64,000 nt of DNA from the NCBI RefSeq assembly GCF_900078705.1, contig NZ_FKIF01000002.1:620001-684000 (forward strand), given 5' to 3'. The DNA comes from Bordetella ansorpii (GTDB lineage Bacteria; Pseudomonadota; Gammaproteobacteria; Burkholderiales; Burkholderiaceae_B). The notes beneath the pieces were generated by a model, which was not told the origin of the DNA, did no database searches, and worked only from the letters and a program-made list of their open reading frames with translations. A program made the position numbers and the translations under genes. This document shows positions 14,414 to 41,091 of this stretch, one piece after another; position 1 is the first letter of the stretch; each line of letters opens with the position of its first letter.

Positions 14414-14484
14414 GGTTGTCTCCTTGTCAGGACGGCCTTCAGCGGGCCGTTGACAACCATTCTGGTCCTAAATTGCGCGTATGG

Positions 14485-15753
14485 CTACTGCGGACGTGGC
14501 GGGATCGTATCGTCCGGTGTCGCCCGGGGCCGGGACAGCACTGTCAGGACGGCGAGCATGACGACGTAGTAACTGATTGATCGCATGCCGCGGAACATCA
14601 GCTCCGTCAGGCCGAATATCGCGAAACCCAGGCACAGCGCCACGCCCATCGCGGCGGCGGTGCGCGCCGCCTGGGGATGGTCGCGGCGCATGCGGCGCAG
14701 GAACAGGCAGGCGGGCGCCAGGTACAGCGCCAACAGGCCCAGGCCGCCGGGCAGGCCGTACAGGGCCATCGCCATCAGCATGTCGTTGTGCGTTTCGCCG
14801 AAACCTTCGGCCACATATGCAGAGACCTGGCCTTCCTGGGCACGTTGTTTCAGGCCTGCGACGAATTGCGCGCCGTTGCCAACGCCCGTCCAGGGGTTTT
14901 CCTTGAACATCGCCCAGGCCGAGCGCCAGAGTTGCAGGCGGATGCACATGGAGGTGTCGGCGGTCTGCTGCGTCGATTCGCATTCGCGCACCTCTGTGAA
15001 GCCCTGCGCCACGCGTTCGCGAAGCCCGCCGTTGGTGGCGCCGATGGCGGCCAGCACGGCCAGCGTGGCGATCAGGAGGACCAGGGCGCGCACGGGATGG
15101 CGCACTCTGCGGCCAAGGGCCAGGGCGATGATGGCGAACAGTGGGAAGGCCATCCAGCCGGTACGGGTCTGGGTGAGGATGAAGCCGAGGAACGCCAGAC
15201 AGGCGACGGCGATCTTGAGCGTCTTTTCCAGCCTGGGCATGCGTGTCAGCGGCCATTCCAGGCTGTAGAGCACCATGACGCCCGTCAGCAACATCAGATT
15301 GCCGTAGCTGACGGCATTGAACTGCGGGGTGAGCGGGCGTTCGAAGGTGGGCCAGGACAGGTACAGAACCACCGCGAACGAGGCTGCGCCCGCCAGCAGC
15401 AATCCCCAGGCGAACCGCCGCAGGACCCGGTCATCCATCAGGAGCAGGCCGGCCAGCAGCAGCGGAAACGCCAGGGAGACGCGCAAGGCGCGCTCTATTT
15501 CAGTGGAGCGCCAGGCATGCAGGGTCCACTGGCTGAGAACCGTGGCGGCCAGCGGCAGGCACAGGGCGAGGATGAGCCAACGGTATGGCCGCAGGCGCGA
15601 CCGGGCCTCGCCGGCCCGAGGGGCGGCGACTAAGATACAGACCAGCAACAGGGCATAGAACAGGCCGCTGCTGCCGCCGACAGTCAGCATGGCGATTGGC
15701 GACAGTGCCAGCAGCAGGCAAGACAGGACGGAGGCGCGGTAGCTAGGCGTCAT
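14485..15753 (-). CDS. waaL: O-antigen ligase family membrane protein (WaaL-like)
   Basis: A 422-residue polytopic protein of the Wzy/WaaL superfamily with about eleven hydrophobic segments. It has a long periplasmic loop (about residues 240-330) containing arginines, cysteines and the conserved-type motif GFGETHNDMLMAMALYGLPG, where a histidine is essential in WaaL. It would transfer finished O-polysaccharide from undecaprenyl diphosphate to lipid A-core in the periplasm. The polymerase Wzy belongs to the same fold, but the Wzm/Wzt exporter in this locus makes a ligase more likely than a polymerase. It is divergent from the initiating transferase gene and marks the left edge of the polysaccharide locus. 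Confidence 0.8.
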   Translation of the reverse strand: MTPSYRASVLSCLLLALSPIAMLTVGGSSGLFYALLLVCILVAAPRAGEARSRLRPYRWLILALCLPLAATVLSQWTLHAWRSTEIERALRVSLAFPLLLAGLLLMDDRVLRRFAWGLLLAGAASFAVVLYLSWPTFERPLTPQFNAVSYGNLMLLTGVMVLYSLEWPLTRMPRLEKTLKIAVACLAFLGFILTQTRTGWMAFPLFAIIALALGRRVRHPVRALVLLIATLAVLAAIGATNGGLRERVAQGFTEVRECESTQQTADTSMCIRLQLWRSAWAMFKENPWTGVGNGAQFVAGLKQRAQEGQVSAYVAEGFGETHNDMLMAMALYGLPGGLGLLALYLAPACLFLRRMRRDHPQAARTAAAMGVALCLGFAIFGLTELMFRGMRSISYYVVMLAVLTVLSRPRATPDDTIPPRPQ

Positions 15754-15872
15754 CGGGCGCGATAGGTCAAAAATGCAGCGGTTTGCCGCAGCATTCCATT
15801 GTGGTCGGGCAGTATAGCCCGCTCGAACCAGAGGGACTTAGGTGCCCGGATGCAACAACGCTCGAAAAATCG

Positions 15873-15910
15873 CGTCATTCCGTCATTTCCCGTCATCCGC
15901 CCACTACAAT
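15873..15910 (+). promoter_or_regulatory. Candidate promoter with three CGTCAT direct repeats
   Basis: Three head-to-tail copies of CGTCAT-Y (15873, 15881, 15891) spaced 8 and 10 bases apart end 5 bases before a good -10 hexamer TACAAT at 15905-15910. The -35 position (about 15882-15887, GTCATT) is poor and lies inside the repeats, which suggests an activator-dependent promoter for the polysaccharide operon starting at 15951. No protein is assigned to the repeats. Confidence 0.42.
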
Positions 15911-15950
15911 CCGGGGCCATGCGTGTGGCACACCGACCCAACCCCTTTAT

Positions 15951-17081
15951 ATGCTTTATTTACTCGTAGCGTTTCTCGTATCGCTGGTATTTACGATGTT
16001 GGTGCTGCGATACCGGGCGTGGCACAGCCCGCTGACGGCGGATCACGATCTGGAGGGCGTGCAGAAGTATCACGCCAAGCCCGTGCCGCGCATCGGGGGG
16101 CTGTCGTTGGTGGCGGCCATGGTTGCAACCTGTATTGCGGCAGCCCAGCGTGAACCGCAGGTGCTGCCGGAACTGGTATTGCTTCTGGGGGCCTCCATTC
16201 CCGCCTTTCTCGGTGGGCTGGCCGAGGACCTGACCAAGCGCGTGCGAGTCATCGTCCGTCTGGGGCTGGCCATGCTGTCCGCCCTGTTGGCCTATTATCT
16301 GCTCGGCGCCGCAGTCACGCGCGTGGACATCGTGGGACTGGATTGGCTGCTGGGATTCAGCGCGGTATCCCTGGTCTTTACCATGGTGGCGGTCAGCGGC
16401 GCGGCCAACGCCATCAATATCATTGATGGCTACAACGGGCTGGCCGGAGTGGTTTCGGCGATGATATTCGCTGGTTTTGCCTACGTCAGTTTCTACCTTG
16501 GCGATCGGCTTCTGGTGGTCCTGGCGCTGGGCATGCTGGGCGGCATCGTCGGATTTCTTATCTGGAATTATCCCAACGGCCATATTTTCCTGGGCGATGG
16601 CGGTGCTTATTTTCTGGGTTTCATGATTGGCGAAATGTCGGTGCTGATGCTGGTGCGTCATCCCGAAGTCTCGGCATGGTTCCCGTTGCTGTTGTGTATT
16701 TATCCTGTTTTTGAAACCCTTTTCTCCATTTATCGGAAGCGGCTGTTGCGCGGGGTTTCTCCAGGCGCGCCGGATGGCGTGCACCTGCACATGCTGGTCT
16801 ACAAGCGAGTCGTGCGCTGGGCCGTGGGGTCGGCCGAGGTGCGGCACTTGACTCAGCGCAATGCGTTGACCTCGCCGTATCTGTGGCTGCTGTCGTCGCT
16901 GGGCGTGATTCCGGCCGTGCTGTTCTGGCAGATGCCCGTGGTGCTCATGATCTGCGTCTTTGCATTTTCGGTCACCTATGTCGTGCTTTATCGCCGTCTG
17001 GTGCTGTTCCGCATGCCGCGATGGATGATCATCAAGAAGCGCCACAAGCGGCGTGGCTATTTCGGCCCGAAAAATAAATGA
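15951..17081 (+). CDS. Undecaprenyl-phosphate sugar-1-phosphate transferase (WecA/MraY family)
   Basis: A 376-residue polyprenyl-phosphate N-acetylhexosamine-1-phosphate transferase with about ten membrane helices. It begins LYLLVAFLVSLVF. The cytoplasmic loops carry YHAKPVPRIGG near residue 43, NIIDGYNGLAG near residue 157 and HIFLGDGGAYFLGF near residue 210, the catalytic aspartate motifs of the family. It would start O-unit synthesis by moving a sugar-1-phosphate from a UDP-sugar onto undecaprenyl phosphate at the cytoplasmic face. WecA (GlcNAc), WbpL and TagO are all possible relatives, so no symbol is given. Start ATG 15951 is chosen on the hydrophobic N-terminus. Its stop overlaps the next ATG (ATGA at 17078-17081). 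Confidence 0.88.
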   Translation: MLYLLVAFLVSLVFTMLVLRYRAWHSPLTADHDLEGVQKYHAKPVPRIGGLSLVAAMVATCIAAAQREPQVLPELVLLLGASIPAFLGGLAEDLTKRVRVIVRLGLAMLSALLAYYLLGAAVTRVDIVGLDWLLGFSAVSLVFTMVAVSGAANAINIIDGYNGLAGVVSAMIFAGFAYVSFYLGDRLLVVLALGMLGGIVGFLIWNYPNGHIFLGDGGAYFLGFMIGEMSVLMLVRHPEVSAWFPLLLCIYPVFETLFSIYRKRLLRGVSPGAPDGVHLHMLVYKRVVRWAVGSAEVRHLTQRNALTSPYLWLLSSLGVIPAVLFWQMPVVLMICVFAFSVTYVVLYRRLVLFRMPRWMIIKKRHKRRGYFGPKNK

Positions 17082-18205
17082 TTGTTTTCGTCCGATCTTA
17101 TATCGCAGATTTTGACGCGAGGCTGGGAAAGTATTTTCAGGCGTTGGATTTGGCGGACCTGCCTTTCTCATTTATCGGCTGGAACAAGGATGGGCGGCAG
17201 TCCGGCGAGGCGCCTGGTTTCCGTTATTATCAGCGCCGGGCCCGCCTTGGTGCCGGGTGGGCGAATCTCCTGGTCCTGCTGGGTTGGAATTTCTATATCT
17301 TGCGGCAGTTGTTCGCGATGCGTCGTCAGGCGCGAGTGGTTCACGCTGTTGACCTGGATACGGGGCTGGCTGCCTGGATTTTCTGCACGATATTCCGACG
17401 CAAACTGGTGTTTGACCTGTACGACAAGTACACGGCGGTACGCGGCATTGGCGGCTTGCCCGGCAGCCTGATCGACGCACTGGAGCGTGGTATTGCACGC
17501 CGGGCGGCGCTGACTCTGATCGCCAGCGAAGAGCGGCTTCGCCAGCACGGCCTGGACCCTGGCTGGCGCAACGTCATGGCGCTCGAGAACGTGCCCCAGG
17601 CGGAGGTGGGCTTCACTGCGCCGCCCGGCGCGCGCTTACCCTGGAAAATCGGTTACTTCGGCGTGCTCGAGCCGCGCCATCGCGGCCTGGAGGATTTGCT
17701 GGCCGTCTGCGGCGGCCGGCGCGACGTCGAAGTGCATATCGCCGGCTATGGAGGGTTGGCGGATCATGTCGCCAACGCGGCCAGCCGTTTCGCAAACGTG
17801 CATTTTCATGGGGCGATGTCCAGTTCCGCCGGCCTTGCGCTGATGGCTGGCATGGACGTGTTGGTGGCTTTCTATTATTTGTCCGTGCCCAATCATGCCC
17901 ATGCCTCGCCGAACAAGTACTACGAGCACTTGATGCTCGGACGGCCGCTGGTCACCACGCAAGGCACGCCGCCAGGCGGTCGAATCGAGGCCGAAGGGAC
18001 TGGCTGGGCGCTCCGGGAAGGCAGGCAGTCCATCGCTGCCCTTCTCGATTCGCTGGACGCGCAGCAGATCCTGCGGCGCGGCGCGCGTGCGCGTGCATTG
18101 TGGGACAACAAGTATGCTTCGTATCTCGATCAACATTACCGGGGGGCATACGTGGCGCGAATACGTCTGATGCTGGGCTCCGGAGCGGCCGATGCTGTCC
18201 GGTGA
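17078..18205 (+). CDS. GT4-like glycosyltransferase
   Basis: A 375-residue protein with a GT-B layout. The N-terminal half contains ARVVHAVDLDTGLAAW and a KLVFDLYDKYTAVRG stretch; the C-terminal half contains KIGYFGVLEPRHRGLEDLL (about residues 189-207) and SPNKYYEHLMLGRPLVTT with the nucleotide-sugar-binding glutamate. This resembles family 4 glycosyltransferases that act on lipid-linked sugars in the cytoplasm. Donor and acceptor are unknown. Base composition is somewhat lower in GC than the housekeeping genes. It overlaps the preceding stop by 4 bases and the following start by 14 bases, so it is part of one operon. Confidence 0.8.
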   Translation: MIVFVRSYIADFDARLGKYFQALDLADLPFSFIGWNKDGRQSGEAPGFRYYQRRARLGAGWANLLVLLGWNFYILRQLFAMRRQARVVHAVDLDTGLAAWIFCTIFRRKLVFDLYDKYTAVRGIGGLPGSLIDALERGIARRAALTLIASEERLRQHGLDPGWRNVMALENVPQAEVGFTAPPGARLPWKIGYFGVLEPRHRGLEDLLAVCGGRRDVEVHIAGYGGLADHVANAASRFANVHFHGAMSSSAGLALMAGMDVLVAFYYLSVPNHAHASPNKYYEHLMLGRPLVTTQGTPPGGRIEAEGTGWALREGRQSIAALLDSLDAQQILRRGARARALWDNKYASYLDQHYRGAYVARIRLMLGSGAADAVR

Positions 18206-18956
18206 GAACCCGGCGGTCTCTGTCGTCATGCCCGCCTACAATGCGCGGCTTTCCATCGGAAAGGCGATCGAGTCGGTGCGTGCACAGACACTGACCGATT
18301 GGGAGCTCATCGTCGTCGATGACGCTTCCACGGACGGCACGGCCGAACTGGTGCGGGAATTCGCCGCTGGCGATGAACGTATCTGCCATGTCGTCAATGC
18401 GAAGAACGAGGGCGTCGCCTTGGCGCGCAATCGCGCCCTGGAGCTTGCGCGCGGTCGTTACGTGGCTTTCCTGGACAGCGACGATCTCTGGATGCCTGGC
18501 AAGTTGCAGGCCCAGGTGGCGTTTCTCGATAGCTCTGGCGGGTGGGTGTCCTACGGCAGCTATCGCCGCGTCGATGAGCAGGGACGCGAGATCGGCTTCG
18601 TTCAGGCCCGGGATCATGTCGATTACCCGGCCATGCTGCAGTCGAATTTCATTGGGAACCTGACTGGCATCTACCGGCGCGAGGCCTTGCCGAGCCTGCG
18701 GTTCAAAGTGCTCGGCCATGAGGATTACGTGTTCTGGCTGGAAGCGGTGCGGCAGGCCGGCACGGCGGTTGCCACACCCTTCGATGGGCCGCTGGCCGTG
18801 TATCGGGTGGCGGCGGGTTCCGTATCGGCCAACAAGTTGCGTGCGATCAAATGGCAATGGTCCGTGTACCGCAGGCAACTGGGGCTGCCTTGGCCGCGCA
18901 GTGTCTGGCTATTCGTTCATTACATTTTCTTTGCCTTGGCAAAGCGCCGAAGATAG
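18192..18956 (+). CDS. GT2 family glycosyltransferase
   Basis: A 254-residue GT-A fold enzyme. The N-terminal nucleotide-sugar domain is clear: VSVVMPAYNARLSIGKAIES from about residue 9, then VVDDASTDGTAEL, and the DXD-like LDSDDLWMPGKL near residue 95. An acceptor-side motif, GHEDYVFWLEAV, appears near residue 176. It has no membrane segments apart from a weakly hydrophobic C-terminus and would act at the inner face of the membrane on an undecaprenyl-linked chain. Sugar specificity is not readable. Confidence 0.88.
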   Translation: MLSGENPAVSVVMPAYNARLSIGKAIESVRAQTLTDWELIVVDDASTDGTAELVREFAAGDERICHVVNAKNEGVALARNRALELARGRYVAFLDSDDLWMPGKLQAQVAFLDSSGGWVSYGSYRRVDEQGREIGFVQARDHVDYPAMLQSNFIGNLTGIYRREALPSLRFKVLGHEDYVFWLEAVRQAGTAVATPFDGPLAVYRVAAGSVSANKLRAIKWQWSVYRRQLGLPWPRSVWLFVHYIFFALAKRRR

Positions 18957-19008
18957 TGCCGAGGTAGTCAGGTATTACGCAATTGCCCGTTCGGGTTACC
19001 TAAATAGA

Positions 19009-20493
19009 ATGCTTTTTATGAGATCGCAAAGCATGGATCAAGGAAATCAGGGAGAGGGTCAGCTTCCGCCTCCTCTGGTGATCGACCTGGACGGAACGCT
19101 GATCTACACGGATACGTTGCACGAGGGTGCACTACGGATGCTACGCGACCGTCCGCTGCAGACGCTTCGGATTCCCGTGTGGCTTGCCGAAGGCAAGGCC
19201 GCGCTCAAGCAGCGGTTGGCGTCGGGATCGCTATTCGATCCGGCCACGCTGCCTTATAACGACGAACTGCTGGATTGGATGCGCGGGCAGCGCGCCACGG
19301 GCCGCATGATCGTGCTGTGCACCGCGGCAGACCGTTCGTTGGCGCAAGCCGTGGCCGACCATCTGGGCCTGTTCGACGAGGTCATGGCCAGCGATGGCGC
19401 GCTCAACCTGTCGGGCTCCAACAAGGCCGAGGCGCTCGAACAGCGTTTCGGACGCCGTGGTTTCGACTATGCGGGGAATTCCAGCGTGGACTTCGCCGTA
19501 TGGGAGCGCGCCCGTCGCGCCATCGTGGTGAATGCATCGACCGCGGTGGCCGCCAAGGCTTCCGGGCAGTATCAGGTCGAGCGCACTTTTCCACCGAAGC
19601 CGCGCGGCGTAACTGCTTGGCGGCGTGTGTTTCGTGTGCACCAATGGCTGAAGAACCTGCTGCTGTTCGTGCCCCTGCTGGCCGCCCACGAATGGGCCAA
19701 CGCCGATATGGTGGCGTCGCTGATCGTGGCTTTCCTGGCATTCAGCCTGTGCGCCTCCAGCGTGTATGTGGCGAATGATCTGCTCGATCTCGAAAGCGAT
19801 CGCCTGCACCCGCGAAAGCGCTTCCGCCCCTTCGCCTCGGGCGCTGTACCGGTTTGGATGGGTGTTTTGCTCGCCCCCATGCTGATGCTCGTCAGTTTTG
19901 CCGGAGGCGCGCTGGTCGGCGGCCAGTTCCTGAAGTGGCTTGCCGTGTATTTCGTACTTACGTGCGCGTATTCCTGGGGCCTGAAGCGGGTGATGTTGGT
20001 CGATTGCCTGACCTTGGCTCTACTCTACACATTGCGCATCATCGCCGGCGCGGCGGCCGTCGGGCTGGGCCTGACTTTCTGGCTGCTCGCCTTCTCAGTG
20101 TTTCTCTTCCTGTCGCTGGCGTTCGTCAAACGCTACGCGGAGCTCGAGGCGCATCGGAAGAGCGGTAAGCAGAAGCTGCACGGTCGCGGTTATCACACGG
20201 ACGATGCCTCGCTCATCCAGACCATGGGTATCACTTCCGGCTACGCGTCGGTATTGGTGCTGGCGCTGTACCTGACAAGCGATACGGTTCTCATGCTGTA
20301 CCGGGTGCCCGAAATGATCTGGGGCGCCGTGCCTGTCATGCTGTTCTGGGTAAGCTGGATGTGGATGCAAGCCCATCGTGGCCGTATGCATGACGACCCG
20401 TTGGTCTTTGCCGTGAAGGACCCGGCCAGTCTGGCGGCCGGCGTTGTGTTCGCCCTCGTCATGGGCCTGGGAATCATTGGGATACCATGGTAG
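19009..20493 (+). CDS. HAD phosphatase-UbiA prenyltransferase fusion (DPPR synthase-like)
   Basis: A 494-residue two-domain protein. Residues 20-190 are a HAD-type phosphatase: DLDGT with D26 and D28, a CTAADRS second motif and GSNKAEAL with the conserved lysine. Residues 205-490 are a UbiA-type prenyltransferase with about eight helices; NDLLDLESD starting at N256 is the Mg-diphosphate motif. In mycobacteria the UbiA enzyme Rv3806c joins phosphoribosyl diphosphate to decaprenyl phosphate and a separate phosphatase removes the 5-phosphate. Here one protein could do both. The next two genes resemble DprE1 and DprE2, which supports this reading over quinone biosynthesis. ATG 19018 and 19033 are alternative starts; none has a strong ribosome site. 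Confidence 0.82.
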   Translation: MLFMRSQSMDQGNQGEGQLPPPLVIDLDGTLIYTDTLHEGALRMLRDRPLQTLRIPVWLAEGKAALKQRLASGSLFDPATLPYNDELLDWMRGQRATGRMIVLCTAADRSLAQAVADHLGLFDEVMASDGALNLSGSNKAEALEQRFGRRGFDYAGNSSVDFAVWERARRAIVVNASTAVAAKASGQYQVERTFPPKPRGVTAWRRVFRVHQWLKNLLLFVPLLAAHEWANADMVASLIVAFLAFSLCASSVYVANDLLDLESDRLHPRKRFRPFASGAVPVWMGVLLAPMLMLVSFAGGALVGGQFLKWLAVYFVLTCAYSWGLKRVMLVDCLTLALLYTLRIIAGAAAVGLGLTFWLLAFSVFLFLSLAFVKRYAELEAHRKSGKQKLHGRGYHTDDASLIQTMGITSGYASVLVLALYLTSDTVLMLYRVPEMIWGAVPVMLFWVSWMWMQAHRGRMHDDPLVFAVKDPASLAAGVVFALVMGLGIIGIPW

Positions 20494-21782
20494 CCATCAC
20501 GTCCTGGGGGCGACTGGTACAGGCCGAACATGCGATCACGCCGCTGGCCGACCGTGTAGGGGCGGGCACCGCGATTCGTCACGCCACGCCAGGCCTGGCC
20601 CATGGCATGGGGCGTAGCTATGGCGATGCCTGCCTGAATCCCGGTGGCGCGCTGTGGCTCACACGGGGACTGGACCGTTTTATTTCTTTCGATCCCGACT
20701 CCGGACGCCTGGCGTGCGAGGCGGGCGTGCTGCTGCGCGATATCCAGCGGCTGGCCGTGCCGCGCGGCTGGATGCTGCCAGTCACACCGGGCACGCAGTT
20801 GGCCACGGTAGGCGGGGCCGTTGCAAACGACGTGCACGGCAAGAACCATCATGTCGTGGGGTCTTTCGGTGACCAGGTCACTCGCCTGACCCTGCTGCGC
20901 ACCGATGGTGATGTCATCGAGTGCGGGCCGGATACTCGGCCTGACTGGTTTGCAGCCACGGTGGGGGGCATCGGCCTGACCGGGCTGGTCACGGCCGCCG
21001 AGATCCAACTGCGTCGAGTGGCGGGGCCTTGGCTCGAGTCCGAGACGCTGGTTTACCGCAGCCTGGAAGAGTTCCTGGCGCTGGCCGACGCCTCCGAGGC
21101 CGATTGGGAGCACACCGTGTCGTGGATCGATTGCCTGTCCGGCGGTCATCGTGGCTTGTTCATGCGTGCCAGGCATGCCGAGGGCGCCGACGGGCCGCCG
21201 CCCAAGGGCGGCGCCAAACGGATGCCGTTGACCCCGCCGGTCTCGCTGGTCAACGGCTTGAGTCTGCGCGCCTTCAACGCCGCCTATTTCCGAATGAACG
21301 CACGCAAGAAGGGCCGTGCGCGGGTACATTACGAGCCGTTCTTCTATCCGCTGGACAACCTGCTCGAATGGAACCGCATGTACGGGCCGCGCGGGTTTTA
21401 TCAGTACCAATGCGTCATTCCGCGAGAGCAGGGCCGGGTGGCCTTGCAGGCGATACTCGACGAGATTGCCCGGTCGGGCAACGGATCTTTCCTTGCCGTG
21501 CTGAAGACTTTTGGCAACCGCAGCTCCCTCGGCATGTTGGGATTCCCTCGGCCAGGCATCACGCTGGCGCTGGATTTCCCCAACAAGGGGTTGCCGACCG
21601 AGCGTCTGTTCGCGCGGCTGGATGCGGTGGTGGGCGAAGCTCGGGGCTGCCTGTACCTGGCCAAGGACGCGCGCATGCCCAGGTCCTTGTTCGAGGCGGG
21701 CTATCCCCGGTTGCCGCAGTTCCTGCCGTACCGGGACCCAGGCATTTCCTCGGCGATGTCACGTCGGCTGATGGGCTACTAG
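20487..21782 (+). CDS. DprE1-like FAD-dependent decaprenylphosphoryl-ribose oxidase
   Basis: A 431-residue FAD-linked oxidase of the PCMH/ALO type. The FAD-binding stretch GMGRSYGDACLNPGG lies near residue 39, and GGAVANDVHGKNHHVVGSFG (H117) matches the core of mycobacterial DprE1. The C-terminal LYLAKDARM keeps the lysine (K393) equivalent to DprE1 K418. The residue equivalent to the benzothiazinone target Cys387 is alanine (A361). Expected role: oxidise the 2-hydroxyl of polyprenylphosphoryl ribose to the keto intermediate, the first half of its epimerisation to arabinose. It overlaps the HAD-UbiA gene by 7 bases and precedes a DprE2-like reductase by 16 bases. Confidence 0.85.
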   Translation: MVAITSWGRLVQAEHAITPLADRVGAGTAIRHATPGLAHGMGRSYGDACLNPGGALWLTRGLDRFISFDPDSGRLACEAGVLLRDIQRLAVPRGWMLPVTPGTQLATVGGAVANDVHGKNHHVVGSFGDQVTRLTLLRTDGDVIECGPDTRPDWFAATVGGIGLTGLVTAAEIQLRRVAGPWLESETLVYRSLEEFLALADASEADWEHTVSWIDCLSGGHRGLFMRARHAEGADGPPPKGGAKRMPLTPPVSLVNGLSLRAFNAAYFRMNARKKGRARVHYEPFFYPLDNLLEWNRMYGPRGFYQYQCVIPREQGRVALQAILDEIARSGNGSFLAVLKTFGNRSSLGMLGFPRPGITLALDFPNKGLPTERLFARLDAVVGEARGCLYLAKDARMPRSLFEAGYPRLPQFLPYRDPGISSAMSRRLMGY

Positions 21783-21798
21783 AAAAAGGAATCACAGC

Positions 21799-22539
21799 AT
21801 GAGAATCGTCATCATTGGCGCCACGTCCGCCATCGCCGAGCATTGCGCGAGGATATGGGCATCGCGCTCCCCCTCTTCCTTCGTATTGGTCGGTCGGGAC
21901 GTGGGCAGGATGGAACGTATCGCGGAAGATCTGCGGGTTCGCGGTCCGCACGTCCAGGTCGATTGCCTCCAGGCTGATTTCCTCGATCCGGTCCGTATCC
22001 GCGAGACGGTCGATGGAATTTGCAACCATGGGCGCGCGGATCTGGTGCTCATCGCGCATGGCTCGCTGCCCGATCAGCAGCAGTGCCAGGATGATCTGAC
22101 GGCCTGTCACATGGCTCTCGAGGTCAACGGTACATCGCCGGTGCTGTTCGCCGAGGCGTTTGCCGCGCATATGGCGCGTACCGGCAGCGGTACGCTGGCG
22201 GTCATCGGGTCGGTGGCCGGCGATCGCGGTCGCCGTTCGAATTATGTCTATGGCGCGGCAAAGGGTCTTGTCACACGATATGTGCAGGGGCTGCAGCATC
22301 GTTTCGCCAGCACCGGCGTGAAGGCCGTGCTGATCAAGCCTGGTCCCACGGACACGCCGATGACGGCGGGCATCAAGCAGAAGGGCGCTCGCCTAGCGTC
22401 GGTCCAGGATGTCGCCGCATGCATCGTGCAGGGCATTGAACGCGGTCGGCCCGTGATCTATGCGCCCGGCAAATGGGCGTTGATCATGATGGTCATCCGG
22501 CACATGCCCCGTTTTGTGTTCAACAGAATGAACATCTAG
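21799..22539 (+). CDS. DprE2-like short-chain dehydrogenase
   Basis: A 246-residue SDR with the NAD(P)-binding motif GATSAIAEHCARIWA at residues 7-21, the active-site serine in VIGSVAGDRG, and YGAAKG with the catalytic Tyr-Lys pair. The C-terminal part ends in a hydrophobic patch (KWALIMMVIRHMP), as in DprE2 proteins that act on a lipid substrate. Expected role: reduce the keto intermediate from the DprE1-like enzyme to polyprenylphosphoryl arabinose. Alone it could be any SDR; the assignment rests on the neighbours. It ends convergently with the GtrA gene. Confidence 0.8.
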   Translation: MRIVIIGATSAIAEHCARIWASRSPSSFVLVGRDVGRMERIAEDLRVRGPHVQVDCLQADFLDPVRIRETVDGICNHGRADLVLIAHGSLPDQQQCQDDLTACHMALEVNGTSPVLFAEAFAAHMARTGSGTLAVIGSVAGDRGRRSNYVYGAAKGLVTRYVQGLQHRFASTGVKAVLIKPGPTDTPMTAGIKQKGARLASVQDVAACIVQGIERGRPVIYAPGKWALIMMVIRHMPRFVFNRMNI

Positions 22540-22579
22540 CATGAGGCGTGTCCAGGCCAGCTGAGTGCCGGCCTGCCGC

Positions 22580-22981
22580 CTAGGCAGGTTCCGTGCGGAA
22601 CACGTATTGCTTGTCCAGGCGGTACTTCACCACGTATCCGATGGCCAGGCCGATCACGCCGCCGATGTAGCGCATGGTCTTGGTCTCGAACAGGTGATGG
22701 AACCCGAACTCCACGCCCCAGAAGATGGCCGTGGTCGCCAGGCCCATCACGCAATACAGCACGAAGGTGCGGGTATCGTGCGCCACGTCGCGCGCCTGGA
22801 ATCGGAAGATGTAGCGCTTGTCCAGCACATATTTCACCACCAGCCCCACACCAGTTCCGATGACGATCGAGGCCAGGATGGCGAAGGGGCCGGAGTAGCC
22901 GCGAACCACCAGTTCCTGGGCGCCGATATTGGCTGCCGTCGCGATCGCCGCCAACAGCGCGTAAGTCAAGGCGAGTTTCAT
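22580..22981 (-). CDS. GtrA-family membrane protein (candidate lipid-linked sugar flippase)
   Basis: A 133-residue protein with four hydrophobic segments and the arginine/lysine-rich GtrA repeats, each ending in a KY-LDK-Y-F pattern (VKYVLDKRYIFRF and VKYRLDKQYVFRT). GtrA proteins are thought to flip polyprenyl-phosphate sugars; in mycobacteria Rv3789, beside dprE1, belongs to this family and was linked to arabinose supply. This gene is the last of a two-gene minus-strand unit with the GT-C enzyme (4-base overlap). It faces the DprE-like genes, and the arrangement suggests that it moves polyprenylphosphoryl arabinose to the periplasmic face. Confidence 0.85.
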   Translation of the reverse strand: MKLALTYALLAAIATAANIGAQELVVRGYSGPFAILASIVIGTGVGLVVKYVLDKRYIFRFQARDVAHDTRTFVLYCVMGLATTAIFWGVEFGFHHLFETKTMRYIGGVIGLAIGYVVKYRLDKQYVFRTEPA

Positions 22982-24735
22982 TTAGGGTTGCGTTCGCCGG
23001 GGGCGACGCCATCGTAGTCGAAGGCCGAGATCTGGTAACCCTCCTGGGCGGGGAAGTCGAGCGTGTGCAGGCGGCGCAGCGTGACGCGTGCGTCGGTCGG
23101 ATTGGCCAGGACTACGTCGATGAAAAAGTCGGGGCGGGCGCCGTACAGGTAATCCGGGAGGGAGCGGTTGGCCAACTGCGCTGCTGCCGCATCGTTGTTC
23201 GACAGGCCATCCAGGTTGATCACGCGGTCTTCCAGCACCAGGCCGAGCGCACCGGCGCTGTACGCGGCCACGGTCTTCGTCTGCCAATCTGGCACGTTTT
23301 CCTTGTACCAGAGCCCGGCGGCGATCATGGTGTTCTGCCAGCGTTTGCCTACGCCGTCGGTCAGGTCGGCGGCCGTGTACGGCTGGAATGCCCGATACCG
23401 GTCCAGCGAGCCGACTTGGGTAAATGCGATGGCGGTTAGGGCGAGCAGGGTGACGACGCGGGAAAGCGGTGCGGGCACCAGGCGAGTCAGCCACGCCCAC
23501 AGCAGGTAGACGCCGATACCTGCCACCAGGGATGAGATCGCCGGCGCGTCGTAGAAGTACCAACTGGCGTAGTACATCTCGTGCGGACGCTTAAGCGCCA
23601 TGGCCAGGCCCATGAGGAACGATCCCGCGGCGAATGCGGCGATGACCATTGGGACGACGGCAAGCGTGCGCGGCCCGCGAATGACCGAGCGCAGCGTGCC
23701 AATCAGACACACGGCGGCGGCCGCTCCCAGGGTGACGTAGAGGATGGTCTGCGTGCCGGGATCGCGCGCGGCGGCTGCCCAATTGGGTTGCGGCAGCATG
23801 ACCATGCTGGGACCGAACGAGCCGAACTGCAGCGCGGTCAGCAGGTAGTTCCAGGCCTGCCCGATCGCGCTCATGCTGAAACTCAGCGACGGCGCGGCCG
23901 ATTTGATCGCTGCGGAGAAAGGCACGAACACGCCGAAATAGGCCTTGGCGAAGACGAGCCATGCCAGCAGAGGGAGCGCCAGGCCCGTGATGTAAGGTTT
24001 GTACGCGCCACGGAATGCCCATGCGAATACCGCCAGGTATAGAAGGGTCGACGGAACCGGCCGTGTGATCGCCAGCAGGCCCGCGATCAGGCCCGCCAGG
24101 AAAATACGGCCGGGACGTGCCGATGCTTGCACACCCAGCGCCAGGTAGATGCTGAGCATCAGCAGCATGGCCGCAAAGGGGTTTTCCTTGCCGGTGGTCG
24201 AATTCAGGAAATTCCAGGCGTTGGCGAAGTAAACCGCCAGCGCGATGGCGCCACACACATACGCGGGACCCAGGAAGACACGGCCCGATGTCTTGCCCTG
24301 CTGGGCGCAGGCCCGCACGACAGCCATCATGATCAGGACGCCAGTGGCGGCGAAGAATACGGCATTCAGAAAGAGGGAAGTGCGCAGCAGTGAGGCGATG
24401 GAATCCGTCATCAGGCCAACGAGTGAAAGCAACAGCTCATAGCCTGGCTGGAACCCATAGGAAAGAACGCCGCCGAAAGACATCTCCTTGCCATGGGAGA
24501 AATTGAAGGCGGGAATGATGTAGTAGAAGCTATCGTCCTGGATGGACGCGGCCAGTGCGTACAGATCGCTGCCGAAGAAGATTCGTGCCGATTGCGATAG
24601 CACGATCCAGGCGCTGAAGCCTGCCAGCGCCCAGACGGCCACGGCGGTCAGCCGCTCTAGCCACGCAGTCCCGACCGTTGCCGACGCAGCGCCTTCCTCG
24701 TTGCGATCAGTGTTTGCCATGTCCGAAAATTTCAT
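22978..24735 (-). CDS. GT-C fold membrane glycosyltransferase (candidate arabinosyltransferase)
   Basis: A 585-residue protein with about ten or more hydrophobic segments. The first extracytoplasmic loop has SIQDDSFYY, the acidic pair typical of GT-C enzymes that use polyprenyl-phosphate sugars, followed by a GYELLLSLVG amphipathic stretch. The last 120 residues form a soluble periplasmic domain. Next to GtrA and opposite the DPA-like genes, it is the likely transferase moving the lipid-linked pentose onto polysaccharide, pilin or another acceptor. Acceptor and linkage are unknown. The frame is open to 24861, but the upstream codons look non-coding. M at 24735 or 24720 are both possible starts, neither with a clear ribosome site. 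Confidence 0.72.
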   Translation of the reverse strand: MKFSDMANTDRNEEGAASATVGTAWLERLTAVAVWALAGFSAWIVLSQSARIFFGSDLYALAASIQDDSFYYIIPAFNFSHGKEMSFGGVLSYGFQPGYELLLSLVGLMTDSIASLLRTSLFLNAVFFAATGVLIMMAVVRACAQQGKTSGRVFLGPAYVCGAIALAVYFANAWNFLNSTTGKENPFAAMLLMLSIYLALGVQASARPGRIFLAGLIAGLLAITRPVPSTLLYLAVFAWAFRGAYKPYITGLALPLLAWLVFAKAYFGVFVPFSAAIKSAAPSLSFSMSAIGQAWNYLLTALQFGSFGPSMVMLPQPNWAAAARDPGTQTILYVTLGAAAAVCLIGTLRSVIRGPRTLAVVPMVIAAFAAGSFLMGLAMALKRPHEMYYASWYFYDAPAISSLVAGIGVYLLWAWLTRLVPAPLSRVVTLLALTAIAFTQVGSLDRYRAFQPYTAADLTDGVGKRWQNTMIAAGLWYKENVPDWQTKTVAAYSAGALGLVLEDRVINLDGLSNNDAAAAQLANRSLPDYLYGARPDFFIDVVLANPTDARVTLRRLHTLDFPAQEGYQISAFDYDGVAPGERNPK

Positions 24736-25128
24736 ACGCGGGATTTCGCTGAGTAAGGCTTGCGAGAGGGCGGCGGCGGCCGGGGGAGCAGACGCCCCGA
24801 GGGGCGCCAAAGGTGCTGGAAATGCCTGGCCTGACATTCGTCCCTCAGGGAAGGACGGCATCTTTTCTACACAACCGGCGGATTATTCCGGCTTTTTGGG
24901 CTGGCAGTATACGGAATTCCACGGAGGGCGTGCCCCGTAAGTGCAGAAACTTGATGCCCGCGGCGGGCAGGCAGCCAGGCGCCCCAGCCTATAATCCGCA
25001 GGCATCGCGCCCGGCAGACGGCCGTCGGGCCATCTCGAAGCGGCCCCGCGCCGGGGCCGCCGCCAGCCCAAGGCCCCAAGCGAGGCAGTTCCGAACAAAC
25101 CGCGTGATATCCGCGCCGAACGCCCAGA
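24736..25128. other. Divergent intergenic region, GT-C / wzm
   Basis: This 393-base gap has no convincing gene on either strand. It should contain the promoter of the minus-strand GT-C/gtrA pair and that of wzm-wzt. It includes a perfect GC hairpin at 25040-25060. No clear -35/-10 pair stands out in the GC-rich background. Confidence 0.35.
25040..25060. repeat. Perfect 9-bp inverted repeat upstream of wzm
   Basis: GCGGCCCCG (25040-25048) and CGGGGCCGC (25052-25060) are perfect complements around the loop CGC, about 70 bases before wzm. Without a T-tract it is not a standard terminator; it may be a leader hairpin affecting wzm-wzt expression. Confidence 0.4.
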
Positions 25129-25980
25129 ATGAGTCATAGCAGAACCCGTACGTTGAATCCCGCTTCTCGGCATCGTGCCTCGCCCATGGCGTTGGCTGGA
25201 TCGATCCTGGCGCATCGGGCGCTGATAGGCAGCCTGGTTCGGCGTGAGGTCGTGGGCCGCTATCGTGGTTCCGCACTGGGCCTGCTGTGGTCGTTCTTCA
25301 ACCCGATCTTCATGCTGCTGGTCTATACCTTCGTGTTCAGCGTGGTCTTCAAGGCGCGCTGGCCGGGTGGCACCGAGTCGCGCACCGAGTTCGCGCTGGT
25401 GCTGTTCGCCGGCCTGATCGTGTTCAATTTCTTCGCCGAGTGCATCAACCGCGCGCCGTCGCTGGTGTTGTCCAACGTCAATTACGTCAAGAAGGTGGTG
25501 TTTCCGCTGGAGATACTGCCCTGCGTGGCCGTGGGATCGGCGCTGTTTCACCTGGCCATCAGCCTGACCGTGTGGGTGCTGTTCTACGTCATCTTCTACG
25601 GCGTGCCGCATGCCACGGTGCTGCTGTTCCCCGTGGTGGTGGTGCCGCTGATCGTGATGATCCTGGGCCTCTCGTGGTTCCTGGCGGCGTTGGGCGTGTA
25701 CTTGCGTGACGTCACGCAGTTCATCGGCATCCTGACCACCGTGCTGATGTTCGTGTCGCCAGTGTTCTATTCGCCCACGGCGTTGCCCGAACAGTACCGC
25801 TGGTTCATCAACCTGAGCCCGCTGACGATGATTGTCGAGCAAGGCCGTGCCGTGCTGTTCTGGGGGCAAGGCATCAATTGGCTTGGGTGGAGCGTGTACG
25901 CGGTTGCCTCGGTGATCGTGGCCATGCTGGGTTACGCCTGGTTCCAGAAAACCCGCAAGGGCTTTGCCGATGTCCTCTGA
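25129..25980 (+). CDS. wzm: Polysaccharide ABC exporter permease Wzm
   Basis: A 283-residue ABC-2 type permease with six hydrophobic segments. The N-terminal amphipathic region has VRREVVGRYRGSALGLLWSF, a hallmark of Wzm/TagG/KpsM permeases. It would pair with the next gene, Wzt, and move undecaprenyl-diphosphate-linked polysaccharide from cytoplasm to periplasm. Start at 25129 is tentative: M20 at 25186 (MALAGSILAHRAL) also fits the family's usual length. It overlaps wzt by 11 bases, so the two subunits are translationally coupled. Confidence 0.92.
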   Translation: MSHSRTRTLNPASRHRASPMALAGSILAHRALIGSLVRREVVGRYRGSALGLLWSFFNPIFMLLVYTFVFSVVFKARWPGGTESRTEFALVLFAGLIVFNFFAECINRAPSLVLSNVNYVKKVVFPLEILPCVAVGSALFHLAISLTVWVLFYVIFYGVPHATVLLFPVVVVPLIVMILGLSWFLAALGVYLRDVTQFIGILTTVLMFVSPVFYSPTALPEQYRWFINLSPLTMIVEQGRAVLFWGQGINWLGWSVYAVASVIVAMLGYAWFQKTRKGFADVL

Positions 25981-28217: not shown

Positions 28218-28238
28218 CCGCCAACAGGGTAATTTCTC

Positions 28239-29270: not shown

Positions 29271-29291
29271 ACCGAGACAACGGCCCAGGCT

Positions 29292-29309
29292 GGCGGACGC
29301 GGGTCCGCC
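29292..29309 (+). terminator. Hairpin after galE
   Basis: GGCGGAC (29292-29298) pairs with GTCCGCC (29303-29309) around the loop GCGG, shortly after the galE stop and 45 bases before the next gene. There is no T-tract, so it may be an operon-internal hairpin only. Confidence 0.35.
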
Positions 29310-29353
29310 CATCGCGGCAATGCATTCGATAGACGAATCACTATTCTGAAAAA

Positions 29354-31939
29354 ATGAGCGAAGGCATGGAAAACAAGAGTTCGGCGTCCATCGGCCGGAA
29401 TATAGGGGTGTTCCTGTACCGGGCGGCGCGATTCGTGGGCAAGCGCCTGCCGCTGCCTCACGGCGTGAAATCCCGCGCCAAGGCGCAGGTGCTGGCCGTG
29501 GTGTCGTGGCTGCAGCAGCGCAGCCAGAACCGCAAGCAGTTGGACATCGGCAAGATGGTGGGCGGCGTGGAGATGCGGCCCGAGGCGTGCGGCCTGGTGC
29601 CGGGCCTGGTCAGTGTGATCCTGCCTGTCTACAACCAGGGCTACCTGATCGCCGAGGCCATCGAGAGCGTGCTGGCGCAGACCTACCAGGACTTCGAGCT
29701 CATCATCGTCAATGATGGCTCGTCCGATGGCGTCGAGCAGGTGCTCCAGCCGTACCTGTCCAATCCCAAGGTGCGCGTCTATACGCAGAAGAACCAGCGG
29801 CTGCCCAAGGCGCTGTCCAATGGCTTCGAACTGGCCCAGGGCGAGTTCTGGACCTGGACCTCGGCCGACAACATCATGGAGCCGCGCATGCTCGAAATGC
29901 TGGTCGAGCGCCTGCGCGGCGATCCCACCATCGGCATGACGTACGCCGACTACTACGCCATCGACGACCGCGGCGAGTTGCTGCAGGACCCGACCTGGCG
30001 GGCGCACAATCGCAAGGACGTGGCTTCCGGCGAGATCGAGCTGCCCCGCGACACCAACGTGTTGAACACCGTGCAGGACAATTTCATCGGGGCCTGCTTC
30101 ATGTATCGCGGCTGGATCGGCCGTTGCTTCGGCGACTACGATCCACAGTTGGGCATCGAGGACTACGACTACTGGATGCGCATCAACGCGTTCTTCCCGA
30201 TCAAGCATCTGGAAAAGAAGGCGTTCCTGTATCGCTACCGGGTGCACGACAACACGCTCAGCGCGCAGGCCCAGGAGCATCGCATCCTGGAGAAGGTGCA
30301 ACGCCTGATGAATTACGAAAGCGAGCGCGCCGCGTTCTACGCGCAGCCGCTGTCGTACGTGGTGGACGACGTGGCGCGCAAGTGGCTGTCGCGCCGCGGC
30401 GTGGCGTCGCGCCAAATGCAGGCCTTGCCGCAGGAAGGCCGAGTGCCCGATGGCGCCAACCAGGTCGTGGTCGTCAGCATCGCTACGCTGGCGAAGTCGC
30501 CGCATCGCTTGCACGGTACGGGCGCCCTGGCCGTCATCCTGGATGACGACCGGGCCGATTACGTCCGTGCGCACGATGCCCTGTCCACTGGCGCCGTGGC
30601 GCTGGCGCCCGATGCCGCGTCTGCCGCGCGCATGCGCCTGCTGTCCAAGTGCCCGGTGCTGGACATTTCGTCCGGCCAGGCGCTGGCAGGCCTGCGGGCC
30701 TATGCCAAGAACCGCCTGTTCTTCCACGCCACGCGCAAGGCCGACGAACTGGCGCGCCAGCGTCCCGAGCGGCTGTTGCCGCCTGCGGGCCTGGGCGTGA
30801 TGCTGCAGGTCGACGATTTCGTGCAGGGCGGCCTGGAGAATGTCGTCATCGACTTGGCCATTTCACTGCGTGATCTGGGCCACCGTGTCGGCATCGCCGT
30901 GCTGGGCCGTGAAGGCCATGCGGCGGAAGCGGCGCGCCAGGCGGGAGTGACGCTGCACTCGTTCGGCAAACACCCCTCGCCGAAAGCCTACACCGATCTG
31001 CTGCGCGAGCAGCGTATTGACGTGGTCAATGCCCACTACAGCCTGTTCGGCGCCGATATCTGTGCCAGCATGGGTATTCCGTTCGTGCAGACGGTGCACA
31101 ACTCGTATGTGTGGCTGGGTCCGGATGATCAGCAGGCGCACCAGCAGGCCGACCCGAGCACGGTGTCGTATGTATGCGTGTCTGCCACGGCCGCGCGCTA
31201 CGCCGACCTTGTGGTGGGCCTGGACGTGACCCGCATCAAGGTGATTCCCAACGGCATCGATCCGCGCACGATCGACCGTACGCACGTAGCCGAGAACCGA
31301 GCCCGCCTGCGTCAGGCCTGGGGGATCGGCGATGACGTGCCGGTGTTCCTGAACGTGGCATCGATCATGCGGCCCAAGGCACAGCTTCAACTGGTGCGTG
31401 CCTTTGCCGCAGTGGTGCGTCAGTCGCCCCAGGCGCGGCTGTTGCTGCTGGGCCGCGCGGTGGAAGAGGACTACCTGGCCGAGATCAAGGCGGCCATCGC
31501 CGAGAACGGCCTGGGTGGCAACGTCGTGCTGGCGGGGTTCGATCCCGACGTGGCGTCTTACTACCAGGCGGCCGATTATTTCGTCCTGCCGTCTTTCTGG
31601 GAGGGCTGGAGTCTGTCGCTGGGCGAGGCCGTGGCCAATGGCCTGCCTTGCGTCATCACCGACGTAGGGTCGGCTTACGAGTTCTACGACCACGAAGGCG
31701 TGGAAGTGGTGACGCCGCCGTTCGGCGACATCACCGAGTTGAACTGCGCCAATCTGGGGACGTACCTGGATGCGCGCGATCCGGCGTTCGAACAGCGCCT
31801 GGGCGAGGCCATGATACGAGTGCTGCAGCGCCGCGGTGCGGGGCTGGACGAGCGTTTCCTGGAGCGTGCGGACCGCGCCGTGGCTTATCGTCGCTACGCC
31901 ATCCATTTTGCCGACCTTGTCGGTCGCGAGAAACGCTGA
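29354..31939 (+). CDS. Two-domain glycosyltransferase (GT2 + GT4)
   Basis: An 861-residue fusion of two glycosyltransferases. Residues 84-310 are a GT2 domain (VSVILPVYNQGYLIAEAIES, IVNDGSSDG, and the acceptor motif GIEDYDYWMRINAF). Residues 470-850 are a GT-B domain of family 4 type: MLQVDDFVQGGLENVVIDLA at its start, VKVIPNGID-like IKVIPNGIDPR, and SFWEGWSLSLGEAVANGLP as the donor-binding E-x7-E region. One protein probably adds two successive sugars of the repeat, or polymerises it, as seen for bifunctional enzymes of ABC-exporter O-antigen systems. The specificities are not readable. Confidence 0.85.
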   Translation: MSEGMENKSSASIGRNIGVFLYRAARFVGKRLPLPHGVKSRAKAQVLAVVSWLQQRSQNRKQLDIGKMVGGVEMRPEACGLVPGLVSVILPVYNQGYLIAEAIESVLAQTYQDFELIIVNDGSSDGVEQVLQPYLSNPKVRVYTQKNQRLPKALSNGFELAQGEFWTWTSADNIMEPRMLEMLVERLRGDPTIGMTYADYYAIDDRGELLQDPTWRAHNRKDVASGEIELPRDTNVLNTVQDNFIGACFMYRGWIGRCFGDYDPQLGIEDYDYWMRINAFFPIKHLEKKAFLYRYRVHDNTLSAQAQEHRILEKVQRLMNYESERAAFYAQPLSYVVDDVARKWLSRRGVASRQMQALPQEGRVPDGANQVVVVSIATLAKSPHRLHGTGALAVILDDDRADYVRAHDALSTGAVALAPDAASAARMRLLSKCPVLDISSGQALAGLRAYAKNRLFFHATRKADELARQRPERLLPPAGLGVMLQVDDFVQGGLENVVIDLAISLRDLGHRVGIAVLGREGHAAEAARQAGVTLHSFGKHPSPKAYTDLLREQRIDVVNAHYSLFGADICASMGIPFVQTVHNSYVWLGPDDQQAHQQADPSTVSYVCVSATAARYADLVVGLDVTRIKVIPNGIDPRTIDRTHVAENRARLRQAWGIGDDVPVFLNVASIMRPKAQLQLVRAFAAVVRQSPQARLLLLGRAVEEDYLAEIKAAIAENGLGGNVVLAGFDPDVASYYQAADYFVLPSFWEGWSLSLGEAVANGLPCVITDVGSAYEFYDHEGVEVVTPPFGDITELNCANLGTYLDARDPAFEQRLGEAMIRVLQRRGAGLDERFLERADRAVAYRRYAIHFADLVGREKR

Positions 31940-32071
31940 CACAAGCGTTGGGTGGAAAGGGGGTGGGATAAACTTGATGCTCGCCCGGCAAGGCTTTCAA
32001 GCGTCCAATGATCGTTGCCTTGCTATCCTTTCCGCACGCTGCAATCCCTCTTCTTCCTGGCCCGGTTCGCT

Positions 32072-33169: not shown

Positions 33170-33180
33170 GGCGCGGTGAC

Positions 33181-33933: not shown

Positions 33934-33938
33934 ACACC

Positions 33939-37425: not shown

Positions 37426-37426
37426 C

Positions 37427-37801
37427 ATGGCCTTTCCGCGTTTCGTGGCCGCGGGCGCCATCAATACCGGCGCGACGTATCTGCTGTATGTGGCCCTGCT
37501 GTGGGTGATTCCCTACGGCTGGGCGTATTCCGTATCGTTCCTCGCGGGCATCCTGCTGGGGTACCTGCTGAACTCCCGGTGGGTATTTCGCGAGGCGCCA
37601 AGTCTGAAGACGGCCGCGGGCTATCCGCTGATATACGCGACGAATTATGTGCTGGGAATTTGTTTGCTGTGGTTGTTGGTGGATAAACTGGGCGCCCCCG
37701 CATTTCTTGCGCCGCTGGTCGTGATTCCCGTTTCGGTGCCGATCATGTATCTGCTTACCAGGGCCTTGTTCAAGAAAAACCATGACGCTCGCCTCGATTG
37801 A
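37427..37801 (+). CDS. GtrA-family flippase candidate
   Basis: A 124-residue protein with four hydrophobic segments. The N-terminal FVAAGAINTGATYLLYVALL and the arginine-bearing LLNSRWVFREAP are characteristic of GtrA. It should flip the polyprenyl-phosphate sugar made by the GtrB-like enzyme. This is the second GtrA in the window; the other, at 22580, belongs with the DPA-like genes and differs in sequence. It overlaps the ketoisomerase gene by 20 bases. Confidence 0.87.
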   Translation: MAFPRFVAAGAINTGATYLLYVALLWVIPYGWAYSVSFLAGILLGYLLNSRWVFREAPSLKTAAGYPLIYATNYVLGICLLWLLVDKLGAPAFLAPLVVIPVSVPIMYLLTRALFKKNHDARLD

Positions 37802-38204: not shown

Positions 38205-38222
38205 TCAGATCCGGCCTTACGA

Positions 38223-40172: not shown

Positions 40173-40205
40173 CACGCCGCCGGGCCCACACGTGAAGGAG
40201 ACTCT

Positions 40206-41081: not shown

Positions 41082-41091
41082 GGGTGGTCCG

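What the first reader, a model, noticed from the sequence alone, without database searches (positions are those of the whole stretch)
19009..24735. Complete decaprenylphosphoryl-arabinose-like pathway in a betaproteobacterial O-antigen locus
Five adjacent genes match every step of the mycobacterial DPA route: a UbiA-type phosphoribosyl transferase fused to a HAD phosphatase, DprE1-like oxidase, DprE2-like reductase, GtrA flippase and a GT-C transferase. DPA is the D-arabinofuranose donor of mycobacterial cell walls. Gram-negative examples are few: pilin arabinosylation in some Pseudomonas aeruginosa and Nod-factor arabinosylation in Azorhizobium. Here it lies inside a surface-polysaccharide locus, so an Araf or ribofuranose decoration of LPS or pili is predicted. 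The HAD-UbiA fusion would replace two separate mycobacterial enzymes.
Basis: partly seen in the sequence, partly recalled or inferred. Interest (0 to 1): 0.78.

Follow-up and report, generated by a model that had tools for sequence, protein, structure and literature searches.

The report
Arabinose-decorating cassette in O-antigen locus
A bacterium related to Achromobacter carries a five-gene cassette predicted to make a lipid-linked arabinofuranose and add it to its surface polysaccharide; this type of pathway was published in 2024 and has many relatives, and the fresh points are a natural empty site in a sister species and an AftB-like final transferase.

Summary
Five open genes at 19009-24735 encode a HAD-UbiA phosphoribosyltransferase, DprE1-like oxidase, DprE2-like reductase, GtrA flippase and GT-C transferase. 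The fused protein's only PDB matches are mycobacterial DPPRS; the next two match mycobacterial DprE1 and DprE2 best. Best explanation: the cassette makes undecaprenyl-phosphate D-arabinofuranose, flips it, and adds Araf side chains to an ABC-transporter-type O-antigen in the periplasm.

New evidence: (a) same-genus genome G011 has the collinear O-antigen locus without the cassette, 272 against 6,252 bases; (b) the window's GtrA subtype abuts a DPA gene in 10 of 10 other loci seen, 7 of them chosen through HAD-UbiA; (c) the GT-C is AftB-like by profile, though alone it does not match AftB; (d) locus L177 holds all five families in one co-directional run.

The novelty claim fails. Kelly et al. 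(PNAS 2024, PMC11127046) characterised a HAD-UbiA fusion and reported DprE1/E2 homologues for Araf glycans. Of the best 80 of 529 confirmed genomic relatives, 73 carry both DprE genes. Pili are unlikely: no PF00114 pilin was found.

The parts
19009..20493 (+). HAD phosphatase - UbiA polyprenyl-phosphate phosphoribosyltransferase fusion (other in-frame ATGs at 19018 and 19033)
   Evidence: Pfam UbiA and HAD; only PDB hits at E<=1 are Mtb DPPRS 8j8j/8j8k; HAD D26/D28/K139/D161 and UbiA N256, D257, D260, D264, R375, E378 invariant in 9 aligned sequences, same spacing as ORF15 N247, D248, D251, D255, R366, E369 in PMC11127046
20487..21782 (+). DprE1-like FAD oxidase (polyprenyl-P-ribofuranose 2-oxidase)
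   Evidence: PDB best Mtb DprE1, 1.1e-66; aligned H132, K134, K367, K418 conserved, C387 is Ala (residue list recalled)
21799..22539 (+). DprE2-like SDR (2-keto reductase)
   Evidence: PDB best Mtb DprE2 (entry 21gq, which also holds DprE1), 3.4e-26; NCBIfam PRK07102, then DprE2
22580..22981 (-). GtrA-family predicted flippase
   Evidence: PF04138; same subtype within 149 bases of a DPA gene in 9 of 9 other loci and in L177
22978..24735 (-). GT-C transferase, AftB-like by profile
   Evidence: no Pfam/NCBIfam hit; matched at 1.7e-13 by an HMM built without it; profile containing it hits AftB 9dlf_C, 1.1e-12; alone no match to AftB
18957..25112 (.). insert absent from the collinear locus of same-genus genome G011 (left border taken at the GT2 stop; the blastn block ends at 18860)
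   Evidence: blastn blocks 14443-18860 and 25113-31927 match L156 1-4400 and 4673-11474
14485..15753 (-). O-antigen ligase (Wzy_C), context
15783..17081 (+). WecA-like initiating transferase (Glycos_transf_4), context
17078..18205 (+). GT4-type glycosyltransferase (Glyco_trans_1_4), context
18192..18956 (+). GT2 glycosyltransferase, context
25129..25980 (+). Wzm-like ABC-2 permease, context
   Evidence: PF01061
25964..27280 (+). Wzt-like ATPase with C-terminal Wzt_C domain, context
   Evidence: PF00005 and PF14524
27252..28217 (+). methyltransferase with heptad-rich C-terminus, possible chain terminator (inference)
   Evidence: C-terminus read by eye from the translation
29354..31939 (+). two-domain GT2-GT4 protein, possible backbone polymerase (inference)

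Best explanation
A five-gene arabinofuranosylation cassette set into an ABC-transporter-dependent O-antigen locus. [quoted passage not shown] (2) The DprE1-like enzyme oxidises C2 and the DprE2-like enzyme reduces it, giving undP-D-Araf. (3) The GtrA protein flips it. (4) The AftB-like GT-C adds Araf to the exported O-polysaccharide in the periplasm before ligation. Family identity, linkage and the empty site are shown; every catalytic step in this organism, undP as carrier, O-antigen as acceptor and D-Araf as product are inferred from characterised relatives.
For: DPPRS, DprE1 and DprE2 are the best PDB matches, with most recalled or published active-site residues kept. A HAD-UbiA fusion of this plan makes farnesyl-P-ribofuranose in vitro, and Araf-containing glycans go with DprE1/E2 homologues (PMC11127046). 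73 of the 80 best relatives carry both DprE genes. Window-type GtrA occurs in 3 of 268 family genomes, the two others beside UbiA, DprE1 and DprE2. GT-C AftB-like by profile, decoys clean. L177 holds all five families in one co-directional run. G011 has the same O-antigen locus without the block. No PF00114 pilin.
Against: P0005 alone does not match AftB: E 2.5 against one AftB segment, about 20th in the list, behind many decoys; phmmer finds no GT-C in the PDB. Two other members of the profiles, L124 and L120, do match that segment (0.0011 and 0.0055), so the AftB signal may come mainly from them. The profile without P0005 and L120 does not list L120. Of 12 loci with such GT-Cs from a class-wide search, 1 has the full DPA set, 2 a UbiA homologue and 9 none in the stretch fetched, among these the two strongest matches. 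In 0 of the 80 best HAD-UbiA loci does tblastn at 1e-5 find P0005. DprE1/DprE2 score below NCBIfam cut-offs, and Y314, N385 and C387 differ. No structure could be predicted. No glycan data.
Confidence: 0.8

Rival explanations
1. The + strand genes make undP-Araf, but the - strand GtrA/GT-C pair is an independent gtr-type module using another lipid-linked sugar; Araf is added by an enzyme elsewhere.
For: The pair is on the opposite strand; GT-Cs of this profile also occur without DPA genes in the stretch fetched (9 of 12 loci).
Against: No polyprenyl-phosphate GT2 (GtrB) accompanies this pair, while the other GtrA/GT-C pair in the window has its own (36496-37425). This GtrA subtype abuts a DPA gene in 9 of 9 other loci, 2 of which were found through the GtrA alone. 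L177 has the same families in one run. G011 lacks all five genes together.
Confidence: 0.1
2. The end product is ribofuranose or another pentofuranose: the donor leaves before or without full epimerisation.
For: HAD-UbiA loci without DprE genes in the fetched stretch exist in the family (8 loci, L040-L047), and the C. youngae transferase accepts Rib and Xyl donors (PMC11127046).
Against: DprE1 and DprE2 are open, contiguous and conserved with HAD-UbiA.
Confidence: 0.07
3. The acceptor is a type IV pilin or other protein, as in some Pseudomonas strains.
For: Pilin arabinosylation is the older Gram-negative precedent (PMC12369383 passages).
Against: No PF00114 pilin in the genome; the same search rings in 1 of 14 control genomes, E. 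coli, so it can find one. Other pilin families were not searched. The block sits inside the O-antigen locus.
Confidence: 0.04
4. The UbiA protein is a quinone or other prenyltransferase and the neighbours are an unrelated oxidase and SDR.
For: UbiA is a broad family; weak NCBIfam matches to 4-hydroxybenzoate octaprenyltransferase, heme o synthase and other prenyltransferase models exist (20-51 bits).
Against: Decaprenyl-P phosphoribosyltransferase models score 130-147 bits and PRK08238 683; the only PDB matches at E<=1 are DPPRS.
Confidence: 0.01

Closest known systems
Pentofuranose three-component systems of C. youngae O1/O2 (Kelly et al. 2024, PMC11127046)
   Same: HAD-UbiA fusion with matching active-site spacing, epimerase gene(s) (in O2), flippase and GT-C acting on an ABC-transporter-dependent O-antigen; the paper reports DprE1/E2 homologues where Araf is present.
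   Different: GtrA-family flippase instead of a small EmrE/ArnE-like protein (called MATE in the paper); AftB-like GT-C, relation to GT136 not tested; two convergent gene runs.
Mycobacterial DPA pathway (Rv3806c, DprE1, DprE2, AftB)
   Same: Homologues by PDB match for UbiA, DprE1 and DprE2, and by profile for AftB. That Rv3789 belongs to the GtrA family is recalled; PMC11127046 calls it an SMR-family exporter.
   Different: HAD domain fused in place of Rv3807c; predicted undecaprenyl carrier; target an O-antigen, not arabinogalactan.
P. aeruginosa / P. paraeruginosa pilin arabinosylation (PSPA7_6245-6251, TfpW)
   Same: Lipid-linked Araf idea, genes on a genomic island (PMC12369383 passages).
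   Different: No PF00114 pilin here; the P. aeruginosa synthase lacks the fused phosphatase domain (PMC11127046).
gtr seroconversion cassettes (GtrA-GtrB-GT-C)
   Same: GtrA plus GT-C, variable between strains, periplasmic side-chain addition (PMC11127046 introduction).
   Different: Donor made from PRPP by UbiA, not by a GtrB GT2.

Membership tests
Pentofuranose three-component system (Kelly 2024) | UbiA-type polyprenyl-P phosphoribosyltransferase with N/D motif and loop IV R/E | tested here: met
   against residues listed in PMC11127046
Pentofuranose three-component system (Kelly 2024) | HAD-type phosphoribose phosphatase domain, fused | tested here: met
   PF12710 residues 24-159; DxD invariant in 9 sequences
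Pentofuranose three-component system (Kelly 2024) | DprE1/E2 homologues when the sugar is Araf | tested here: met
Pentofuranose three-component system (Kelly 2024) | small EmrE/ArnE-like flippase of the prototype (called MATE in the paper) | tested here: not met
   the flippase gene is GtrA PF04138; so it works like the system but is not of the prototype's make-up
Pentofuranose three-component system (Kelly 2024) | GT136 transferase | not tested
   no GT136 sequence in hand; the GT-C is AftB-like by profile
Pentofuranose three-component system (Kelly 2024) | pentofuranose side chain in the glycan | not testable with these tools
   needs NMR
AftB-like GT-C | sequence homology to AftB | tested here: inconclusive
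   profiles with it hit AftB 7.2e-9 and 1.1e-12; the protein alone does not
Mycobacterial DPA pathway | DPPRS, DprE1, DprE2 homologues | tested here: met
Mycobacterial DPA pathway | separate Rv3807c-type phosphatase | tested here: not met
   HAD domain fused instead
Pilin arabinosylation (TfpW type) | type IVa pilin gene in the genome | tested here: not met
   0 PF00114 matches in the genome
Quinone UbiA prenyltransferase | best match to quinone prenyltransferase models | tested here: not met

The most novel reading that the evidence does not exclude
The final transferase is a true AftB-type enzyme outside Actinobacteria that adds a beta-linked D-Araf to an O-antigen with retention, its donor supplied by a GtrA flippase dedicated to undP-Araf. 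PMC11127046 says that all but one of the pentofuranose side chains it found were alpha-linked and names AftB as the precedent for beta linkage.
Probability: 0.2. Interest if true: 0.6.

Novelty: new member of a known kind. Interest (0 to 1): 0.42.

Why it matters
It shows the mycobacterial lipid-linked arabinose chemistry (by prediction) as a portable side-chain cassette in an O-antigen locus, with a natural with/without pair in one genus, so the effect of the cassette on the glycan can be compared directly. It also links a GtrA subtype and an AftB-like transferase to lipid-linked Araf, which could help annotate orphan GtrA and GT-C genes.

Tried and rejected
P0005 found no relative in the first genome-contig scan, in plasmids, or in 268 family and 300 order genomes. 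One weak hit in 369 class genomes (G839, 5.5e-4) led to L133 and so to the profile; blastp of L133's GT-C against P0005 alone as database gave 2e-6. Tests of P0005 against GT-Cs of relatives by phmmer gave nothing below 0.12. The GT-C next to GtrA in L095 is not related at profile level. The only phage match to HAD-UbiA is a 32% match to the UbiA part in one 6.6 kb record. No direct repeat of 10 bases or more was found between 18850-19020 and 24850-25135. A quinone-UbiA reading was rejected. The listings showed no report of Araf in Bordetella or Achromobacter O-antigens. The SI of PMC11127046, which lists Araf systems, could not be opened, so this organism or a relative may be in it.

Gene models in fetched loci come from my own ORF picker (GC3-based), which missed some DprE genes that tblastn then found; counts rest on tblastn. 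One search was the same script with wrong file names and gave nothing. The seven loci without both DprE genes end 0 to 3 kb after HAD-UbiA. In one search, 28 of 268 genomes have the fused protein (one in two pieces) and 27 a UbiA-only match, judged by the part of the query covered. I fetched flanks for 16 of the 27 other fused ones and 6 of the 27 unfused ones; of these 6, 3 have DprE1 and DprE2 (L049, L152, L153) and 3 (L048, L050, L051) have neither. L040 and L043 lie near contig ends, so absence of DprE there is weak. A weak match of P0004 to the other GtrA subtype in L035 (27%, 2.6e-4) is not counted as window-type.
Full report
Observation. HAD-UbiA, DprE1-like and DprE2-like form a run on the + strand; GT-C then GtrA form a run on the - strand that meets it tail to tail. 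Neighbouring frames within a run overlap (HAD-UbiA/DprE1 by 7 bases, GT-C/GtrA by 4) or lie 16 bases apart (DprE1/DprE2).

Identity of the proteins. The fused protein matches NCBIfam PRK08238 over nearly its whole length at 683 bits, then decaprenyl-phosphate phosphoribosyltransferase models at 130-147 bits; the 4-hydroxybenzoate octaprenyltransferase and heme o synthase models score under 30. Its only PDB matches at E<=1 are two constructs of M. tuberculosis DPPRS. In an alignment of nine such proteins (window plus eight from the same family) the HAD DxD and the UbiA residues N256, D257, D260, D264, R375 and E378 are invariant. Their spacing equals that of N247, D248, D251, D255, R366 and E369 of C. 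youngae ORF15 as given in PMC11127046. The oxidase matches DprE1 (1.1e-66) and the SDR matches DprE2 (3.4e-26). Both score below NCBIfam's equivalog cut-offs. In DprE1 the aligned Y60, H132, K134, W230, Q334, Q336, K367, F369 and K418 are kept, while S228, Y314, N385 and C387 are V, F, T and A (the residue list is recalled).

How common it is. Fused HAD-UbiA occurs in 28 of 268 family genomes, and 27 more have a UbiA-only match. In the genus only the window's genome has it (1 of 15), and the same holds for DprE1 (1 of 15). Of these 80, 77 have DprE1, 73 DprE2 and 73 both; in 72 DprE1 follows HAD-UbiA within 150 bases on the same strand. The 80 are the nearest relatives, so they are not a sample of all HAD-UbiA genes. 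In the family, the eight fetched loci with HAD-UbiA at 39-46% identity (L040-L047) have no DprE1 or DprE2 in the fetched stretch, which fits a ribofuranose version.

The flippase. The window's GtrA subtype was found in 7 of the 80 loci (tblastn, 1e-5) and in 3 of 268 family genomes including its own. In these nine other cases it lies 5 to 149 bases from a DPA gene, and 15 bases from DprE1 in L177. The seven were chosen through HAD-UbiA, so for them nearness within 8 kb is given beforehand; the two family genomes were found through the GtrA alone. This ties the - strand GtrA to the + strand genes. The GtrA typical of many relatives (38 of 80) is a different subtype that lies within 105 bases of an amine-oxidase-like gene in 37 of 38.

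The transferase. P0005 has no Pfam or NCBIfam hit even at E 10 and no relative at 1e-5 in 268 family and 300 order genomes. A weak class-level hit led to a GT-C in G839 (L133). A profile of that protein and the GT-C that abuts HAD-UbiA in a Candidatus Competibacteraceae genome (L124), built without P0005, finds P0005 at 1.7e-13; apart from the two profile members, the best of the other membrane proteins scores 0.18 and the best of 200 shuffles 0.24. hhalign gives 96.3% over 412 columns, against 0.1-0.3% for three control proteins. Profiles including P0005 have AftB as their only GT-C match in the PDB, 7.2e-9 and 1.1e-12. Against this, P0005 alone does not match AftB, while L124 and L120 do weakly (0.0011 and 0.0055), so the link is transitive and may rest mainly on them.

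In a class-wide profile search, 12 of 369 genomes including the window's have such a GT-C. Of 12 loci from the 11 others, one (L177) has the full DPA set, two (L182, L185) have a UbiA homologue and nine have none in the stretch fetched, among them the two strongest matches. So this GT-C family is not exclusive to DPA loci. L177 carries GtrA, DprE1, DprE2, HAD-UbiA and GT-C in one co-directional run; its GT-C is hit by the profile built without P0005 at 1.8e-16 and by P0005 at 6.6e-6, each with that one protein as database. L120 (Pseudomonas nitroreducens) combines a partial AftB-like match (hhalign 95.2%, 226 columns; not listed by the two-member profile) with the window-type GtrA.

Context and empty site. 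The surroundings are an O-antigen locus of the ABC-transporter kind: O-antigen ligase, WecA-like transferase, GTs, Wzm, Wzt with a C-terminal Wzt_C domain, methyltransferase and GT2-GT4 protein. G011, of the same genus, is collinear at 78-89% DNA identity over these blocks, but between the GT2 and Wzm genes it has 272 bases where the window has 6,252. All five genes thus appear as one gain or loss unit; which of the two happened is not shown. A second difference, 9,185 against 150 bases, lies between the GT2-GT4 gene and the UDP-GlcNAc 2-epimerase gene. No PF00114 pilin was found in the genome, which speaks against pili.

Comparison with the known. PMC11127046 (parts 1-6 of 8 read, and a term search) shows by mutants, in vitro assay and NMR that a HAD-UbiA fusion makes polyprenyl-P-ribofuranose and that a GT-C adds it to an ABC-transporter-dependent O-antigen. 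It states that candidate systems for Araf-containing glycans have DprE1/E2 homologues.

Verdict. Confirmed observation, mostly correct pathway reading, overstated novelty. Shown: gene families, active-site residues, linkage, empty site. Inferred: each reaction, the sugar, its anomer and the acceptor.

Noticed in passing
window 31928-41112: A second 9.2 kb insert relative to G011 (150 bases there) holds a complete gtr-type trio (GT2 36496-37425 PgfS/ArnC-like, GtrA 37427-37801, GT-C 38223-40172) with FdtA, RmlA, an aminotransferase-like gene at 32015 (by reading) and acyl/methyltransferases: probably an amino-deoxy sugar side chain.
   Followed up: partly
L053-L132, for example L054:13286-15930: An NAD epimerase, an amine-oxidase-like FAD protein and a distinct GtrA subtype occur downstream of HAD-UbiA-DprE1-DprE2 in many relatives (45, 43 and 38 of 80); role unknown, not seen in the window's block.
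   Followed up: partly
window 20487-21782: DprE1 position C387, the covalent benzothiazinone target (recalled), is Ala in the window protein, so natural insensitivity is expected.
   Followed up: no
L040-L047: HAD-UbiA followed by a multi-TM protein of about 470-550 aa (PMT_2 family in the one tested, L041) with no DprE genes in the stretch; one genus has HAD-UbiA in 16 genomes, six of them fetched: candidate ribofuranose systems.
   Followed up: partly
window 27252-28217: Methyltransferase with a heptad-rich C-terminus (by eye) beside a Wzt with Wzt_C domain: looks like a chain-terminator and export pair.
   Followed up: no
window 34620-35540: Stretch that by eye resembles a propeller-type glycoside hydrolase (recalled likeness) inside the second insert; no Pfam hit for the longer open frame 34397-36130.
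   Followed up: no
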